Source: Acidobacteriota bacterium (GTDB lineage: Bacteria; Acidobacteriota; Terriglobia; Terriglobales; Acidobacteriaceae). Taken from it: DNA of 37,842 nucleotides. This document shows positions 1-27,684 of the stretch, one piece after another (the stretch's first letter is position 1; every line of letters begins with the position of its first letter). The stretch covers positions 1,288 through 39,129 of the forward strand of contig QIAM01000035.1 of the NCBI GenBank assembly GCA_003225555.1. The letters run 5' to 3'. The translations under genes were made by a program, and so were the position numbers. The notes beneath the pieces were generated by a model. That model ran no database searches, had not been told where the DNA came from, and saw only the letters and a list, made by a program, of their open reading frames with translations.

Positions 1-4
1 AAGC

Positions 5-138
5 TTCGCCGGTGGTGAAGACGAGGGTTCCTTCGGACTCCGAAGGTCGCAGGTTCGAATCCTGTCATGGCTTCGTGCCATGTAGCTCAGTGGGAGAGCA
101 TCGGAACAAATACCGTCGTCGACTTATTCCCCGGCGAA
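5..138 (+). ncRNA. yrlA: YrlA-type Y RNA with tRNA-like (permuted) module
   Basis: Seen: in transcript order there is an outer helix 5-12/131-138 (8 bp perfect), helices 20-24/116-120 and 26-28/112-114, an anticodon-like stem 39-43/101-105 (tccga/tcgga), a 5-nt variable loop (44-48), a T-arm 49-65 with loop TTCGAAT, an acceptor-like stem 66-71/77-82 closed by the loop TTCGT, and a D-arm 85-99 with a GG-containing loop and A at 100. Every tRNA arm is present, but the order is 3' half then 5' half, so the acceptor end is a closed hairpin and the anticodon end is open. Known: bacterial YrlA RNAs have this tRNA-mimicking module joined to a Ro60-binding helix made of both RNA ends, and they are encoded next to Ro60. 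The Ro60 gene begins 105 bp downstream. The transcript ends are not determined, and the 5' end may lie outside the window. A tandem tRNA pair is excluded because neither missing half is present. Confidence 0.82.
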
Positions 139-243
139 TTTCCAACCAAGTCGGACCCTGGTCGCATTGGCCAAGTTCCCATTTGCTAGCTGCTCCAGCG
201 AGTAGCCAATCGGTAAAAGCTGCAAGTTGAAAGGAGGCCACGA

Positions 244-1566
244 ATGGCCCGACTGAATCTGCTGAATCTCAACTTTGGAGCGCGCACGCACGAGGGCGCT
301 CCCGCGCGAAACATTTCTCCGGAGCTGCAGCTGCGCCGCTCGGTGCTGGCGTGCCTGCTTTGGGAGAGCCAGTTTTATGAGGACGGAGTCGAGATCGCCG
401 GCCGCATTGCCGAGCTCGTTCCCAAGGTCGCGGCCGAGAAGGTGGCGGCGATGGCAGTCGAAGGACGCGAGCGGATGAAGCTGCGTCATGCGCCGCTTCT
501 GCTTGTCCGCGAGATGGCTCGCCACAAGACGCACCGCGCCCTTGTGTCGGAGACGCTGGCCCGCATCATTCAGCGGGGCGACGAGCTCGCGGAATTCGTC
601 GCCATTTACTGGAAGGACGGGCGTATGCCGCTTTCCGGTCAGGTGAAGAAAGGTCTGGCGGCAGCGTTCCCGAAGTTTGATGAGTATCAGCTCGCCAAGT
701 ACGAGCGCGTCGGGCCGATCAAGCTGCGGGACGTGCTCTTCCTCTGCCACGCCAAGCCGCGCGATCAGGCGCAGGCCGACGTGTGGAAGAGGCTGGTCTC
801 GGGAAGCCTGACGACGCCGGACACGTGGGAAGTTGCCCTCAGCTCTGGCGCTGACAAGCGCGAGGCTTGGGAGCGCCTGCTTCGCGAACAGAAGCTGGGC
901 GCACTCGCGCTTCTTCGCAACTTGCGCAACATGCGCGAGGTCGGCGTCGACGAGTCACTCGTGCTTTCCGCGCTCGGTTCGATGAGCACGGCACGCGTTC
1001 TGCCGTTCCGTTTCCTGGCTGCGGCTCGTTACGCTCCGCAGTGGGAGGAAGCGCTTGAGCAGGCGATGCTCAAGTGCGTGGCGGAAACCGAGAAGCTGCC
1101 GGGAAAGACCATCGTACTGGTGGATGTCTCCGGCTCGATGACTGCGCCGCTGTCTCGCCGCTCCGAGATGCAGCGCACTGACGCAGCTTACGGTTTGGCC
1201 GTGCTACTGCGTGAGATTGCGGAGAAGGTTGCAGTGTACAGCTTCTCTGACAATCTGGTTGAGGTGCCGGCGCGTCGTGGCTTCGCCCTGCGCGATGCCA
1301 TTGACGTTTCCCATCGCCATAACAGCACCCAGCTTGGGAATGCGGTTGAGAAGCTAAACGCCAACGAGAAGTGCGACCGCCTGATCGTGATCACCGACGA
1401 GCAGGCGCACGACCGGGTACCAGCGCCCGACGGCAAGGGTTACCTGATCAACGTGGCCCGCTACAAGAACGGCGTCGGCTACGGCAAGTGGATGCACATC
1501 GATGGTTGGAGCGAGGCAGTCATCGAATACATCCGTGCGCTGGAGCAGACAGCGTGGATCAACTGA
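244..1566 (+). CDS. rsr: Ro60 / Rsr, TROVE-domain RNA-binding ring protein
   Basis: This 440-aa protein is an ortholog of the Ro60 autoantigen, a ring-shaped cytoplasmic protein that binds Y RNA and misfolded or structured RNAs. In Deinococcus the Y RNA tethers it to polynucleotide phosphorylase for RNA decay. Residues ~1-275 are the helical TROVE repeats (for example RHAPLLLVREMARHK near 81-95). Residues ~287-440 are a von Willebrand A domain with an intact MIDAS: DVSGS at 294-298, Thr362 in STQLG and Asp385 in ITDEQ. The ATG follows a strong Shine-Dalgarno (AAGGAGG, 231-237). Length is slightly short of the ~500-aa animal proteins, as expected for bacterial forms. The Y RNA candidate directly upstream on the same strand supports a Ro60 RNP module. 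RtcB/RtcA, often linked in other bacteria, are not inside the window but could lie to the left. Confidence 0.93.
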   Translation: MARLNLLNLNFGARTHEGAPARNISPELQLRRSVLACLLWESQFYEDGVEIAGRIAELVPKVAAEKVAAMAVEGRERMKLRHAPLLLVREMARHKTHRALVSETLARIIQRGDELAEFVAIYWKDGRMPLSGQVKKGLAAAFPKFDEYQLAKYERVGPIKLRDVLFLCHAKPRDQAQADVWKRLVSGSLTTPDTWEVALSSGADKREAWERLLREQKLGALALLRNLRNMREVGVDESLVLSALGSMSTARVLPFRFLAAARYAPQWEEALEQAMLKCVAETEKLPGKTIVLVDVSGSMTAPLSRRSEMQRTDAAYGLAVLLREIAEKVAVYSFSDNLVEVPARRGFALRDAIDVSHRHNSTQLGNAVEKLNANEKCDRLIVITDEQAHDRVPAPDGKGYLINVARYKNGVGYGKWMHIDGWSEAVIEYIRALEQTAWIN

Positions 1567-1624: not shown

Positions 1625-1701
1625 TGGTGCCAGCGGAGAGATTCGAACTCTCAAACACCTGTTTCTAAGACAGGCTGCTATTCCAATTCGCACACGCTGG
1701 C
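1625..1701 (-). tRNA. tRNA with UAG anticodon (Leu by code), short variable loop, encoded CCA
   Basis: Seen on the minus strand: a 7-bp acceptor GCCAGCG/CGCTGGC, D-arm with GG, anticodon stem CCTGT/ACAGG with loop CTTAGAA (anticodon TAG), 5-nt variable loop TGTTT, T-arm GAGAG-TTCGAAT-CTCTC, discriminator A and an encoded CCA; 77 nt in all. By the code UAG reads CUA leucine codons, but bacterial tRNA-Leu normally has a long (class II) variable arm, which is absent here. The amino-acid identity is therefore uncertain. It lies convergent to Ro60, 58 bp beyond its stop. Confidence 0.8.
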
Positions 1702-1705
1702 ACTC

Positions 1706-1738
1706 TGGTGCACAGGGGAGGATTCGAACCTCCGCGTC
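1706..1738 (-). pseudogene. tRNA 3'-end fragment (T-arm, acceptor 3' strand, CCA)
   Basis: On the minus strand there is a perfect T-arm (GGAGG, TTCGAAT, CCTCC) followed by CCTGTGC, discriminator A and CCA. No matching 5' acceptor strand (GCACAGG), D-arm or anticodon arm lies at the proper distance upstream. It is only 4 bp from the intact tRNA. This could be the remnant of a deleted tRNA, or the short duplicated 3' end that integrases leave at an attachment site. I cannot tell which. Confidence 0.6.
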
Positions 1739-1852
1739 CCCACTGATCCCACACCCGCGTAGACCTAGTGGTCGCCAAATGTTCGCTTGAGGGCGGCGAA
1801 CTCTGGCTCGCCCGTGCAAGGTCGGCTGCTCACATCCCGGTTGGAGCACATC

Positions 1853-2034: not shown

Positions 2035-4686
2035 CTATTTCTCCATCTCCGAAGCCCAGTTAAGAAGAACAGAAAGCGGCGCGGCGTTGGGTTCATCCAC
2101 CTTCGTGGCAATCATGAATTTTCTCCCGTCGGCAGTCACATCGTAGGAGAAGACGTCCTGAGCAGAAATTGGCTGCCGACGTCTAGTCTGAAATAGGGCT
2201 ACGGGCGTTCCGGCTTCGAAGCCGACGGTTGTTGTCTTGACCGGCATCGCCATCAGCTTTCCGTCTGCCGAGACGTAAAATAATTCCTTGCCGTCTTGGC
2301 GCCATCTCGGCTCCTCTCCTCCCGCCGTCGAAACCTGCCACTTGCCATTCGGGTTCGGAAAGGGAGAAACGTAAACCTCCATGTTACCCGTTTCATTGGA
2401 TGAGTAAGCGATCCATCGGCCATCTGGAGAAAACTGCGCATTCCGAATCGCCCACTTTGCCACGAACAATGGTTTCGGCGTGCGGTCAGGCCAAGCGAGG
2501 TACCAAACTTCGCTTTTCTTCCTGATCAGCATGTATTTCCCGTCGCGCGACCAGTCCCAAGGGTTGACCTGCAAATTGGAGCCGAGATCGGCCACCTCTT
2601 CTTCGGAACCCGAACCATCGCTGCTCTTCAGGTAAACGCGAAAGCCGAGCTTGCGGTTTGAAACGAACAGTATCCGCTTACCATCAGGACTCCATATTGG
2701 AGTCGTATCCAGCGACGGATCGAACGTCAGCCGCGTCGTCGCGCCCCGGGCCAGATCGTGGATCCAAACATCTATGTTCCATCCATCCGAATCGGTTTCG
2801 TCTGCAGCGACCCTTTGCCCGTCAGGCGAGATACGCACGTTGTTGTATGAGCCAGACATCCCGACCGTCCCCAATGCCTTCCCGTTTCGGTCAAACCAGG
2901 TTAACTGCGAAAGGGAACCGACTTTCCCGGTTTGTGTGACCAGAACTTCCCCATTGGAAGCACTGAAAATCGCCCTCCCCACGTGCGGAAAGTACAACAC
3001 CTGGTCGCTCAAGGTGCGGGGATCGCCGCTCAGAACGTAGTTCGTGGAGTCGAACGGTTGCGACACGAGTGTCTTGTCCCGCAGGTACAAGAGGTATCCG
3101 GGTTTGGCATAGACTGCGTTCGCGTCCGTGCTCACGATCTGGCGTTTTTCCTGTGAATCTATCGAGCCCAGGAAAATCGCGTTCACTCCTGTCTGCCTGG
3201 TGAAATTAGCAGCCATATAAAGAAAATGCTTCCCGTCGGGAAGGAATACAGGCCAACGGTGGCTTTGTTCAAGCCGAGCCGTATCAAGCTTCGTGATTTC
3301 TACCGCAGAGCCTCCCCAGGCAGGCACCCGGTACAATCCAATAAGCGAGTCGGGCGTGAACACGATCACTCCGTCACGGTTCCAGGTGCCGCCGCGGCCA
3401 TTGGGCGCATCACAGAGCACCTGCACCCGGCCAGCTGACAGGTCTACCTTCTTCAGTTTGCCGTCGGCGAAGAACCCGATGAAATTGCCATCCGGCGACC
3501 AGAACGGGTAGGACGCACCTTGCGTCCCATCCAGCGGGATGGCTCGCTGGCTCCCGACTTCATGCACTAGAAGCGCGTAGTTGTTGACCTGGGTGGAATA
3601 GGCAACCATGGCCAAGGTTCGCCCATTCGGGGACATGGCGAGGTCGTTGGCGGAAAATGGCACCGAAGTATGGAAATACATCGGACGTGCCGAGCGTCCG
3701 CTGGCCTTCCACCAAGCCAGACCTACGACTATTAGAAGTATCAACACCACAACTGCGACTATCCAGCCAGCTTGGTTCCACTGCGTGCTCCCAGCCTGAG
3801 CAGGCCCTACTTCTCCCCCTTGCGAGCCTCCTTCCGCGATCCAAGTCAACTCGCTTGCCAGATCACTCGCACACTGCCAACGCTCGTCTGGATCTTTCGA
3901 CAGGCATTTCCTAACGACTCGCTCCAGAGACGGTGGCGTCATAGCCTGCAAGGCCGTCATGGGCTGTGGCTCCGAAGTGAGAATGGCAGCGATTAAGCTG
4001 GCCCGGCTCTTGCCGGCAAAGGCCGGTTTGCCCGTCGCCATTTCGTATATGAGTTCGCCCAGCGCAAAAATGTCTGCGCGCGCATCGGCCTCTTTCCCTT
4101 CCAATTGCTCCGGCGCCATATATTGGAACGTCCCAACAATCGTCCCCTCGAGGGTCAACTGCGCCTGGTCGGCCGTCATCTCGGTCAGCACGTCTGCCAA
4201 AGGCGCGTGGTCAGATTCCTTCGCCAGACCGAAATCCATTAGCTTGGCTCCGGCCTTGGTCAGCATGACATTCGACGGCTTCAGATCGCGGTGAACAATG
4301 CCCATTCTGTGGGCCTTGGCCAACGCATCGGCAATTTGCGCTGCAAAACGGATGGTCTGCTCCGGCGGCAGGGGTCCCTTGCGCAGACGATGCTCGAGCG
4401 TCTCTCCCTCGACCAGTTCCATGACGAGAAAGTCCACGGCATCCTGATGACCGATGTCATGGAGAGTGCAGATGTGAGGATGAGAGAGTTTCGAAATCGC
4501 TTTCGCTTCGCGCTCCAGCCGTTGCCGTAAGGAAGGATCCGAGGACAGACCAGCAGGCAAGACCTTAAGGGCTACATCTCGTTCCAGCCGCGTATCGCGG
4601 GCACGATACACCTCTCCCATACCACCTGAACCGAGCGGTGATTGGATCTCATACGGCCCGAGTCTGGTGCCAGAGGTCAGCGTCAT
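2035..4686 (-). CDS. Ser/Thr protein kinase with PD40/TolB-like beta-propeller
   Basis: An 883-aa membrane receptor kinase. The N-terminal eukaryotic-like kinase domain (~8-270) has the glycine loop GSGGMGEVYRARDT, the VALKVL lysine, the catalytic HRDLKPSNV, DFGLAKE, and the APEQLEGKEADARADIFALG segment. A juxtamembrane linker leads to one transmembrane helix (IVAVVVLILLIVVGLAWW), then an extracytoplasmic propeller of WD40-like PD40 repeats (recurrent SPDGR/SPDGK turns) to the end. The architecture is common in Acidobacteriota; the ligand is unknown. I chose ATG 4686 because it is six residues before the conserved LGPYEIQ kinase start. An upstream ATG at 4839 adds 51 non-conserved residues. 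It is the second of two similar kinase genes in tandem, with a 205-bp gap. Confidence 0.9.
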   Translation of the reverse strand: MTLTSGTRLGPYEIQSPLGSGGMGEVYRARDTRLERDVALKVLPAGLSSDPSLRQRLEREAKAISKLSHPHICTLHDIGHQDAVDFLVMELVEGETLEHRLRKGPLPPEQTIRFAAQIADALAKAHRMGIVHRDLKPSNVMLTKAGAKLMDFGLAKESDHAPLADVLTEMTADQAQLTLEGTIVGTFQYMAPEQLEGKEADARADIFALGELIYEMATGKPAFAGKSRASLIAAILTSEPQPMTALQAMTPPSLERVVRKCLSKDPDERWQCASDLASELTWIAEGGSQGGEVGPAQAGSTQWNQAGWIVAVVVLILLIVVGLAWWKASGRSARPMYFHTSVPFSANDLAMSPNGRTLAMVAYSTQVNNYALLVHEVGSQRAIPLDGTQGASYPFWSPDGNFIGFFADGKLKKVDLSAGRVQVLCDAPNGRGGTWNRDGVIVFTPDSLIGLYRVPAWGGSAVEITKLDTARLEQSHRWPVFLPDGKHFLYMAANFTRQTGVNAIFLGSIDSQEKRQIVSTDANAVYAKPGYLLYLRDKTLVSQPFDSTNYVLSGDPRTLSDQVLYFPHVGRAIFSASNGEVLVTQTGKVGSLSQLTWFDRNGKALGTVGMSGSYNNVRISPDGQRVAADETDSDGWNIDVWIHDLARGATTRLTFDPSLDTTPIWSPDGKRILFVSNRKLGFRVYLKSSDGSGSEEEVADLGSNLQVNPWDWSRDGKYMLIRKKSEVWYLAWPDRTPKPLFVAKWAIRNAQFSPDGRWIAYSSNETGNMEVYVSPFPNPNGKWQVSTAGGEEPRWRQDGKELFYVSADGKLMAMPVKTTTVGFEAGTPVALFQTRRRQPISAQDVFSYDVTADGRKFMIATKVDEPNAAPLSVLLNWASEMEK

Positions 4687-4698
4687 CCCGCGCGCGTC

Positions 4699-4704
4699 AT
4701 TATA
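4699..4704 (-). promoter_or_regulatory. candidate -10 hexamer for the downstream kinase
   Basis: A perfect TATAAT reads on the minus strand 13 nt upstream of ATG 4686. No convincing -35 is present and there is no Shine-Dalgarno, so transcription from here would give an almost leaderless mRNA. It also argues against the longer start at 4839. Confidence 0.3.
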
Positions 4705-4891
4705 GTACGGAGCCGGCGCGTTAAAGCGGATCCGACGGTTATGGACGGTTTGTCGGCTATCCGGAAGTTGGAATGGCCTCTCGTTAACTTCCGAATAGGC
4801 GCGTGATCTGGGCACAATCGGACGGTGCGGCCCAAACATGTGACCTAGGTTGGTAGCGCGATGCCGTAGGTTCTAAAACGAACGTTCAGCA

Positions 4892-27344: not shown

Positions 27345-27684
27345 GGAGCGGCCTCCGATGTGAATCAGCAGAGCGCACAAGAGACCGTCGCCCGGCTGGG
27401 CACGGCGGAGGGATGTGTCAGAGATTTCCTAAAGTCTAGCACCGGATTAGACAATTACAAGCGCCAAGAGTGTGTTGAAGAAACATGCCGTTGGAGGGGA
27501 CAGTGTTTAGAGACCACAGGCGTCAGTGCGTCGTTTGCGCGATGTTCACCACCGGACTATGCTGTTGTTTAGTCGGCAGGGTGGAGACGGCACAAGAGTT
27601 TTCACCGTTTCCTCTGTCTTGGGTCCGGCCAAAGCGCAACGGTGTCACGCCGGACCACGTCTTCCCCTGCCGCCAAAGCTCTCC
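27345..27684. other. intergenic, nothing recognised
   Basis: About 340 bp. Several short plus frames (for example from 27485) are cysteine-rich by chance and do not resemble proteins. Confidence 0.4.

What the first reader, a model, noticed from the sequence alone, without database searches (positions are those of the whole stretch)
1..1566. Complete Ro60-YrlA ribonucleoprotein module with a permuted, tRNA-mimicking Y RNA
Bases 5-138 fold into all four tRNA arms in permuted order, with canonical spacing (5-nt variable loop, TTCGAAT T-loop, A26-like residue) but an acceptor stem closed by TTCGT and an anticodon stem extended into a helix formed by both RNA ends. This is the YrlA plan, and a Ro60 gene with an intact MIDAS follows. 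Standard gene finders would call this region either nothing or a false tRNA. The 1-72-like position is a T-T mismatch within the 5-nt cap, so no aminoacylatable end can form. The module sits at the window edge, so its other partners (RtcB, PNPase links) may lie to the left.
Basis: partly seen in the sequence, partly recalled or inferred. Interest (0 to 1): 0.85.

Follow-up and report, generated by a model that had tools for sequence, protein, structure and literature searches.

The report
Ro60 gene with tRNA-mimicking Y RNA
This bacterial DNA encodes a small RNA predicted to fold like a rearranged transfer RNA just upstream of the gene for its likely protein partner, Ro60, and related bacteria and phages carry rows of such RNAs, some holding the sequence of a whole rearranged tRNA with its anticodon, which would suit them to lure or tether enzymes that act on tRNA.

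Summary
Window 5-138 (+) is a YrlA-type Y RNA: Rfam YrlA E 1.2e-10, though below its gathering score, with compensatory changes in homologs in all three helices named as refuters. Window 244-1566 encodes a short (440 aa) TROVE/Ro60 protein with an intact MIDAS and a Ro60-like predicted fold. The left neighbour is a BCS1-type AAA ATPase; no RtcB was found in this genome.

To my knowledge new, in related loci: this Ro60 lineage usually sits behind an array of Y RNAs (18 of 20 protein-found loci have two or more). They share one handle but carry different heads. One class holds a complete circularly permuted tRNA with a 7-nt anticodon loop. After in-silico rotation ARAGORN of 28 such heads as tRNAs with the expected anticodon, against 0 of 28 unrotated and 0 of 560 shuffles. 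Eighteen anticodons occur. Others are permuted at the D loop or carry a non-tRNA head.

The window's own RNA is the known, open type. Likely mechanism: Ro60 holds the handle; the head tethers or decoys tRNA-recognising enzymes. Function is untested.

The parts
5..138 (+). YrlA-type Y RNA, open (canonical) type: Ro60-binding handle plus permuted tRNA-like head
   Evidence: Rfam RF02553 match 18-128, 50.3 bits, E 1.2e-10; covariation in a 12-sequence alignment; only frame found in the window on either strand
5..12 (+). 5' strand of the outer (end) helix, pairs with 131-138
   Evidence: helix 1: 95.6% of cells paired, 2 of 8 pairs with both-side changes
131..138 (+). 3' strand of the outer helix
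13..28 (+). 5' handle: conserved TGGTGAA then helix 20-24/116-120 and 26-28/112-114
   Evidence: conserved frame GGTGGYGAAG...GGTTACTTCG in homologs; helix 2, 4 of 8 pairs with both-side changes, 83.3% of cells paired
39..43 (+). anticodon-stem strand (tRNA 39-43), pairs with 101-105
   Evidence: helix 3: 3 of 5 pairs with both-side changes, 84.9% of cells paired; against it: MFE prefers hairpin 30-36/40-46
49..65 (+). T arm with loop TTCGAAT
   Evidence: 100% of cells paired
66..82 (+). acceptor-like helix 66-71/77-82 capped by TTCGT 72-76
   Evidence: 5 of 6 pairs with both-side changes
83..100 (+). D arm (TA 8-9, stem 85-88/96-99, A26)
   Evidence: stem invariant in the 12 sequences
101..105 (+). 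anticodon-stem strand (tRNA 27-31)
111..130 (+). 3' handle: CCGTCGTCG...TTCC
   Evidence: conserved in homologs
231..237 (+). ribosome-binding-site-like AAGGAGG, 6 nt before the ATG
   Evidence: sequence; AAAGGAGG also precedes Ro60 in many relatives
244..1566 (+). Ro60/TROVE protein, 440 aa
   Evidence: Pfam TROVE 2.9e-17; PDB 9l5y/9kop E about 1.6e-31 over residues 9-434; AlphaFold2 pLDDT 82.5, Foldseek hits to Ro60 structures incl. D. radiodurans Rsr 2nvo E 2.6e-13
1123..1137 (+). MIDAS DVSGS (residues 294-298; with T362 at 1327-1329 and D385 at 1396-1398)
   Evidence: D294, S296, S298, D385 invariant and T362 nearly invariant in 22 aligned sequences; MIDAS role recalled, not tested

Best explanation
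The window encodes a small tRNA-like Y RNA directly upstream of a gene for a protein predicted to fold like the ring protein Ro60, and that protein likely grips the RNA by its conserved paired ends so that the tRNA-like head would tether or decoy tRNA-recognising enzymes. Shown here: RNA homology and covariation, the Ro60 gene, their same-strand adjacency, and an array of Y RNAs in most relatives that share one handle but carry different heads. Inferred: that Ro60 binds this handle, that array members compete for or load onto Ro60 as exchangeable adaptors, and that a head acts by presenting a tRNA surface. The acceptor end is capped, so the head should not be chargeable. In relatives, closed heads carry a full 7-nt anticodon loop whose frame (U33, purine 37) is kept while the triplet varies freely. 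The mechanism I commit to is that these heads are decoys or docking sites for enzymes that read the anticodon arm, such as anticodon nucleases, modification or repair enzymes, held on Ro60 near RtcB where that is present. The window's own RNA is the open type, so for it the expected clients read the tRNA elbow (PNPase, DusA/TruB-type enzymes in published YrlA systems).
For: YrlA model hit. Covariation in open, closed and D-loop alignments, 0 of 500 shuffles in each. 297 frames (202 distinct) in 734,764 bases of fetched loci against 0 in the same sequences reversed; of the 202 distinct, 190 lie on the Ro60 strand, 0 on the other, and 12 in loci without Ro60; 0 frames in 30 tRNA-neighbourhood loci. 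20 of the 23 loci have at least 4 kb upstream: all 20 have a Y RNA, 18 two or more, 17 three or more. Rotation test 26 of 28 against 0 of 28 and 0 of 560, plus 3 of 3 chosen phage heads. Unfiltered, U33 in 29 of 31 and a purine at 37 in 30 of 31 strict closed copies. The three anticodon columns (1.82, 1.44, 1.60 bits) are among the most variable unpaired columns, beside 33 (0.28) and 37 (0.45). RtcB gene in three relatives' clusters. PMC7790460 (passages read) proposes that YrlA's tRNA-like domain could competitively inhibit an anticodon nuclease. PMC8394870 (passages read) says that the YrlA basal stem tethers Rsr and the tRNA-like domain binds PNPase.
Against: No transcript, binding or activity data. 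The window's own minimum-energy fold lacks the anticodon stem. This genome shows one Y RNA only and no RtcB. The Ro60 is not the Rsr equivalog of NCBIfam (14.8 bits against a cut-off of 900), so results from D. radiodurans and Salmonella may not carry over. PMC7790460 did not detect fragments of Salmonella YrlA, so the nuclease seen there does not cut it; that RNA is of the open type (recalled). Variable anticodon triplets are also what neutrality at those three bases would give. RtcB is the exception: it shows as a full-length match in only 3 of 40 fetched regions.
Confidence: 0.6

Rival explanations
1. All heads only serve to dock PNPase (RYPER-type complex) for decay of structured RNA. The anticodon arm in closed heads is a structural remnant that completes the tRNA fold, and its triplet is neutral.
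For: Published role of Y RNA as tether of Ro60 to PNPase (PMC8394870 passages; PMC7790460 passages). High triplet variability fits neutrality. Open, closed and D-loop heads all keep the T arm and acceptor hairpin.
Against: U33 and purine 37 are kept in 29 and 30 of 31 strict closed copies, more than loop closure alone needs; array members with different heads in one locus suggest more than one client; the long class has a non-tRNA head.
Confidence: 0.35
2. Closed Y RNAs are permuted tRNA genes: the handle is removed, the ends are joined (for example by RtcB) and the acceptor cap is cut, giving real tRNAs, as in red algae and Thermofilum.
For: Head order (3' part before 5' part) is that of permuted tRNA genes (PMC4033280 passages). 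Rotated heads score as tRNAs. RtcB is adjacent in some loci. The CcrColossus head shows CCA after the acceptor 3' strand (sequence).
Against: CCA lies in the acceptor cap of only 1 of 28 parsed closed heads; heads with Leu or Ser anticodons have a 4-5-nt V loop (the only lengths the script allowed) where real tRNA-Leu and tRNA-Ser have a long arm (recalled); A34 triplets ATC and ACT occur; the L010 Met-type head is no closer to its host's tRNA-Met than to other tRNAs (score 26 against 29 for Lys and Asn; 30 host tRNAs compared out of 43 tRNA hits); the handle is strongly conserved.
Confidence: 0.04
3. The window fold is a chance or degenerate tRNA pseudogene near an unrelated gene.
For: Sub-threshold tRNA hit 11-73 (20.8 bits) and tRNA pieces downstream at 1625-1740.
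Confidence: 0.01

Closest known systems
YrlA bacterial Y RNAs (Rfam RF02553; Chen et al. 2014, not held; Salmonella YrlA structure 6CU1)
   Same: Permuted order T arm, acceptor hairpin, D arm; anticodon stem formed between head and handle; Ro60 gene next door. The window RNA fits this plan.
   Different: Score under the curated cut-off. Relatives carry heads outside the Rfam consensus: closed anticodon loop, D-loop permutation, long non-tRNA head.
Ro60 / Rsr (TROVE) proteins, e.g. D. radiodurans Rsr 2nvo and Thermus phage phiLo Ro60 9l5y
   Same: TROVE plus vWA fold, MIDAS, full-length match.
   Different: Shorter (440 aa); fails the NCBIfam Rsr equivalog cut-off; nearest solved relatives 9kop and 9l5y (Thermus phage phiLo) are at about 26% identity.
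rsr-yrlBA-rtcBA RNA-repair operon of Salmonella
   Same: Ro60 plus Y RNAs in one gene cluster; RtcB present in three relatives' clusters.
   Different: No RtcB hit in this genome; neighbours here are a BCS1-type AAA ATPase and, in relatives, a small Cys-rich protein and an ORF6N gene.
Permuted tRNA genes of red algae and Thermofilum
   Same: 3' part of the tRNA precedes the 5' part in the gene (closed heads).
   Different: Bacterial/phage, part of a Y RNA, capped acceptor; not shown to be processed. PMC4033280 (passages read) lists no permuted tRNA genes in Bacteria (2014).

Membership tests
YrlA (RF02553) | Covariance-model score at or above the gathering score of 69 | tested here: inconclusive
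   50.3 bits, full model length, E 1.2e-10; 7 of 9 close Ro60 loci also hit YrlA near the gene at 38-52 bits, none at 69
YrlA (RF02553) | Permuted tRNA-like head: T arm, acceptor hairpin, D arm inside an anticodon stem | tested here: met
   the window's own MFE lacks the anticodon stem
YrlA (RF02553) | Paired RNA ends (Ro60-binding stem) and a Ro60 gene next door | tested here: met
   outer helix covariation; Ro60 starts at 244, just after the RNA's end at 138
YrlA (RF02553) | Dihydrouridine and pseudouridine in the head (DusA, TruB substrates) | not testable with these tools
   needs RNA
Ro60 / TROVE superfamily | TROVE domain above the Pfam cut-off | tested here: met
   PF05731 63.4 bits, cut-off 23; best stretch covers residues 189-281 only
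Ro60 / TROVE superfamily | HEAT-type ring plus vWA domain with MIDAS | tested here: met
   AlphaFold2 model and Foldseek hits 9kop, 9l5y, 9nep, 2nvo, 1yvp; MIDAS residues
Rsr equivalog (NCBIfam NF041674) | Score of at least 900 bits | tested here: not met
   14.8 bits; hence not filed as Rsr proper
rsr-yrl-rtc RNA-repair operon | RtcB adjacent | tested here: not met
   No PF01139 hit in G000 (86% complete); left neighbour is an AAA ATPase
RYPER complex | Head binds PNPase | not testable with these tools
   needs biochemistry
Permuted tRNA genes | Bulge-helix-bulge at the ends and a mature tRNA product | not tested
   no RNA data; order of parts only

The most novel reading that the evidence does not exclude
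This Ro60 lineage of Acidobacteriota, Alphaproteobacteria and phages runs an adaptor library: a row of Y RNAs with one constant Ro60 handle and exchangeable heads. Many heads are circularly permuted tRNAs cut open at one of three sites (anticodon loop, anticodon stem, D loop). The closed ones display a genuine anticodon loop whose triplet is swapped freely between loci, so that Ro60 presents unchargeable anticodon arms as decoys or sensors for anticodon nucleases and other anticodon-reading enzymes in phage-host conflict.
Probability: 0.3. Interest if true: 0.87.

Novelty: new variant of a known kind. Interest (0 to 1): 0.7.

Why it matters
Y RNAs are known as Ro60 tethers with a tRNA-like head, but what the tRNA mimicry is for in bacteria is open. 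Y RNAs that carry a whole permuted tRNA including a readable anticodon make the published guess of an anticodon-nuclease competitor directly testable. They also show that one handle accepts tRNA cut open at three different places as well as a non-tRNA head. Practically, they explain two false tRNA genes in phage records and call for new covariance models beyond RF02553.

Tried and rejected
Rejected: (a) the window RNA as tRNA or tRNA pseudogene: sub-threshold only. (b) RtcB to the left: not found. (c) A second Y RNA in this genome: the other RF02553 hit is ordinary tRNA-Arg and the other pattern match gives no frame. (d) Closed heads as recent copies of the host tRNA with the same anticodon: one case tested, no. 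(e) A known Rfam family for the long head: none up to E 10 for the one copy tested. (f) Ro60 or the small Cys protein as PADLOC or NCBIfam entries: none fits. (g) Blastn with closed heads: of 54 phage records hit, 18 of the 20 listed lie on annotated tRNAs; the 56 plasmid hits carry no RNA annotation. The Ro60 protein was used instead. (h) Prior art: in the listings and passages I saw nothing describes anticodon-bearing or D-loop-permuted Y RNAs, but the key papers (Chen 2014, Sim and Wolin 2018, Wang 2018, Sim 2020) are not held, so this is no proof of absence.

Limits: classes come from my own scripts; near-misses (a bulged outer helix, one mismatched anticodon pair) are not counted, and the 'open' label is permissive. 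In one search many loci were found by the handle pattern itself, so its 50 of 61 is biased; one search is the protein-found subset (3 of its 23 loci left out for under 4 kb upstream). Of the 40 regions, which I picked by hand as promising, 37 have a frame and 36 a frame and Ro60. Alignment A3 includes L085, which is of closed type; in A4 the loop of L085 is aligned one column off. In one search the 2 of 31 strict copies without U33 were left out before rotation, and 1 of the 29 others had no acceptor hairpin that the script could parse. The phage heads were chosen because they looked closed; in Gurke the frame script found nothing, and its 10-pair outer helix was checked apart. My notebook gives the N run as 129 bases; the count is 109.

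Full report
What is in the window. ARAGORN calls nothing there, and Rfam at gathering scores finds nothing there. At an E-value threshold the YrlA family RF02553 matches 18-128 over its full length (50.3 bits, E 1.2e-10, gathering score 69), while plain tRNA scores 20.8 bits. The RNA folds better than most shuffles (z -3.3; 2 of 200 as good). In that minimum-energy fold a local hairpin 30-36/40-46 replaces the anticodon stem; the best fold with the stem enforced is 5.4 kcal/mol worse, so comparative evidence is needed for it.

Comparative evidence. Ro60 relatives were found in 11 of 121 genomes, the own one included and one of the eleven a weak partial match, and as 23 loci among genome contigs. 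Seven of nine close relatives give a YrlA hit near Ro60 (upstream sequences). On 12 aligned sequences with the structure named from the window, 91.1% of cells pair against 83.4% in shuffles, 16 of 36 pairs show changes on both sides, and no shuffle of 500 reaches this; slid controls fall to 33-50% paired. The three helices named as refuters all have compensatory changes: anticodon stem 3 of 5 pairs, acceptor 5 of 6, outer helix 2 of 8. The D stem is invariant and says nothing.

The protein. ORF 244-1566 (440 aa) has a TROVE domain above the Pfam cut-off and matches the chains 9l5y and 9kop over residues 9-434; 9l5y is a Thermus phage Ro60. MIDAS residues D294, S296, S298 and D385 are invariant and T362 nearly so in 22 aligned sequences. 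An AlphaFold2 model (pLDDT 82.5, pTM 0.74) matches Ro60 structures first: 9kop, 9l5y, a Ro60 complex 9nep, D. radiodurans Rsr 2nvo. It is not the NCBIfam Rsr equivalog (14.8 bits against 900), so I file it as a short TROVE/Ro60 protein and not as Rsr.

Neighbours. Left of the window lie 109 N and then a gene for a BCS1-type AAA ATPase whose likely ATG is at base 41 of the contig, so nothing further left is seen. No RtcB hit occurs in this genome (86% complete). In relatives the cluster holds the same ATPase, a small protein with spaced cysteines and no Pfam or NCBIfam match where tested, sometimes an ORF6N gene on the other strand, and RtcB in L018/L097, L016/L090 and L068.

Arrays. A script asks for the handle: a 5' GTGGYGHA...GNWNCWTC-like motif with up to one mismatch in each half, and a 3' TTCC or variant followed by at least five pairs (seven for variants). 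It finds 297 frames, 202 distinct, in 734,764 bases of fetched loci and none in the same sequences reversed. Of the distinct ones 190 lie on the Ro60 strand, 0 on the opposite strand and 12 in loci without a Ro60 match. Thirty tRNA neighbourhoods of one genome give none. Of the 23 loci brought in by the Ro60 protein, 20 have at least 4 kb upstream; all 20 have at least one Y RNA, 18 two or more and 17 three or more. Up to seven per locus occur. Over 61 distinct loci with at least 1.5 kb upstream, many found through the handle pattern itself, 50 have two or more and 27 a closed head.

Closed heads. In many copies the frame ends in TTCG, and the next bases form a 7-nt loop closed by three pairs (29-31/39-41), while 42-43 pair with the two bases after the D arm (27-28). 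The handle thus sits inside the 5' strand of the anticodon stem, and the anticodon loop is intact. On 21 aligned sequences 92.9% of cells pair, 25 of 37 pairs change on both sides, 0 of 500 shuffles reach this. Over the 32 distinct U33 copies, pair 31:39 occurs as CG, AT, TA and GC, pair 28:42 as CG, TA and GC.

Rotation test. Of 202 distinct copies, 109 have a recognisable T arm and 31 meet the strict closed test; 29 of 31 have U33 and 30 of 31 a purine at 37. Removing the handle, joining 28 to 29 and starting at the acceptor gives ARAGORN calls for 26 of 28 heads, each with the expected anticodon; unrotated heads give 0 of 28 and shuffles 0 of 560. Three phage heads chosen for looking closed give 3 of 3: tRNA-Gln(CTG), tRNA-Ser(GCT), tRNA-Asn(GTT). 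The 32 distinct U33 copies carry 18 anticodons, GTT being commonest with 8. The anticodon columns are among the most variable unpaired columns of the alignment, rivalled by the acceptor cap and a linker, beside nearly fixed 33 and 37. The acceptor cap is 3-12 nt in 27 of 28 parsed heads (41 nt in one) and holds CCA in 1 of 28.

Other heads. Eleven copies, picked by script and by eye, have the handle in the D loop (order: GGTAGAGC, anticodon arm, T arm, acceptor hairpin, TAGCTC). 88.1% of cells pair, 17 of 32 pairs change on both sides, 0 of 500 shuffles. Weak points: the D stem forms in 8 or 9 of the 11 and never varies compensatorily, and the anticodon arm is poorly aligned (73% of cells paired). 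Thirteen long copies (159-192 nt) have a non-tRNA head; 21 of the 43 pairs predicted from their own alignment have a sequence changed on both sides, and the one tested has no Rfam match. Short copies also occur.

Distribution. Closed heads with Ro60 occur in viral contigs L112, L113, L115, L116 and L117, Xanthomonas phage Olaya, Caulobacter phage CcrColossus and Brevundimonas phage Gurke, and Hyphomicrobiales L031. Ro60 relatives are in 82 of 50,697 phage records and 23 of 72,556 plasmid records.

Mechanism. Published work (PMC8394870 and PMC7790460, passages read) has YrlA's basal stem tether Rsr, its tRNA-like domain bind PNPase and be a substrate of DusA and TruB, and suggests that it may compete for an anticodon nuclease. 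From the anatomy I infer that the constant handle is the Ro60 grip and the heads are exchangeable lures. A free anticodon triplet in a strictly kept loop fits display to enzymes that read the anticodon arm; neutrality of the triplet is the main rival. Nothing here shows expression or binding.

Novelty. The window's own RNA and protein are a new member of a known kind. The arrays with anticodon-bearing, D-loop-permuted and non-tRNA heads are, to my knowledge, new variants; the Rfam consensus has no anticodon hairpin, and the listings and passages seen show no report. From memory, the abstract of Chen 2014 says that at least one Y RNA per species has a tRNA-like domain, so several Y RNAs per genome, and heads without tRNA likeness, are probably not new in themselves. 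The primary YrlA papers could not be read, so prior mention of the rest cannot be excluded either.

Noticed in passing
L151:2173-2240 (JX100810 109217-109284) and L152:2817-2891 (ON529850 157691-157765): GenBank annotates tRNA-Gln and tRNA-Ser in two phages; each is the 5' part of a closed Y RNA upstream of a TROVE-related gene.
   Followed up: yes
L019:3262-3424, L017:3904-4095 and 11 more: Long Y RNA class with a conserved non-tRNA head (GGGGGCGTAGTCCCGAAACACAAGGTACC-like core), covarying structure, no Rfam hit for the one tested.
   Followed up: partly
L013:5270-5605, L017:4597-4917, L019:4747-5130 and others: Small protein (about 99-127 aa) with spaced cysteines sits beside Ro60 in many loci; no Pfam match for the two tested and no NCBIfam match for the one tested.
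   Followed up: partly
G000:C20:41-1178 (left of the window; the gene's end lies in or beyond the N run): BCS1-type AAA ATPase next to the Y RNA, kept in several relatives between Y RNAs and Ro60.
   Followed up: partly
window 1625-1740, - strand: A tRNA-Leu (loop CTTAGAA) without the long variable arm usual for tRNA-Leu (recalled), preceded by the 3' half of another tRNA with CCA; no counterpart in the relatives' loci.
   Followed up: partly
window 27584-27663, + strand: Rfam CyVA-1 RNA match just over its gathering score (43.2 against 41.4 bits).
   Followed up: no
L022:5175-5768, L017:5162-5746, L019:5122-5679, L023:5164-5757, L032:5204-5755: ORF6N-domain gene on the opposite strand just upstream of Ro60 (Pfam for L022, the others by clustering).
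   Followed up: no
L013 (Y RNA at 4619-4709) and similar 91-93-nt copies in L003, L005, L017, L022, L032: Short Y RNA class with the handle, a T arm and a small hairpin but no D arm or acceptor.
   Followed up: no
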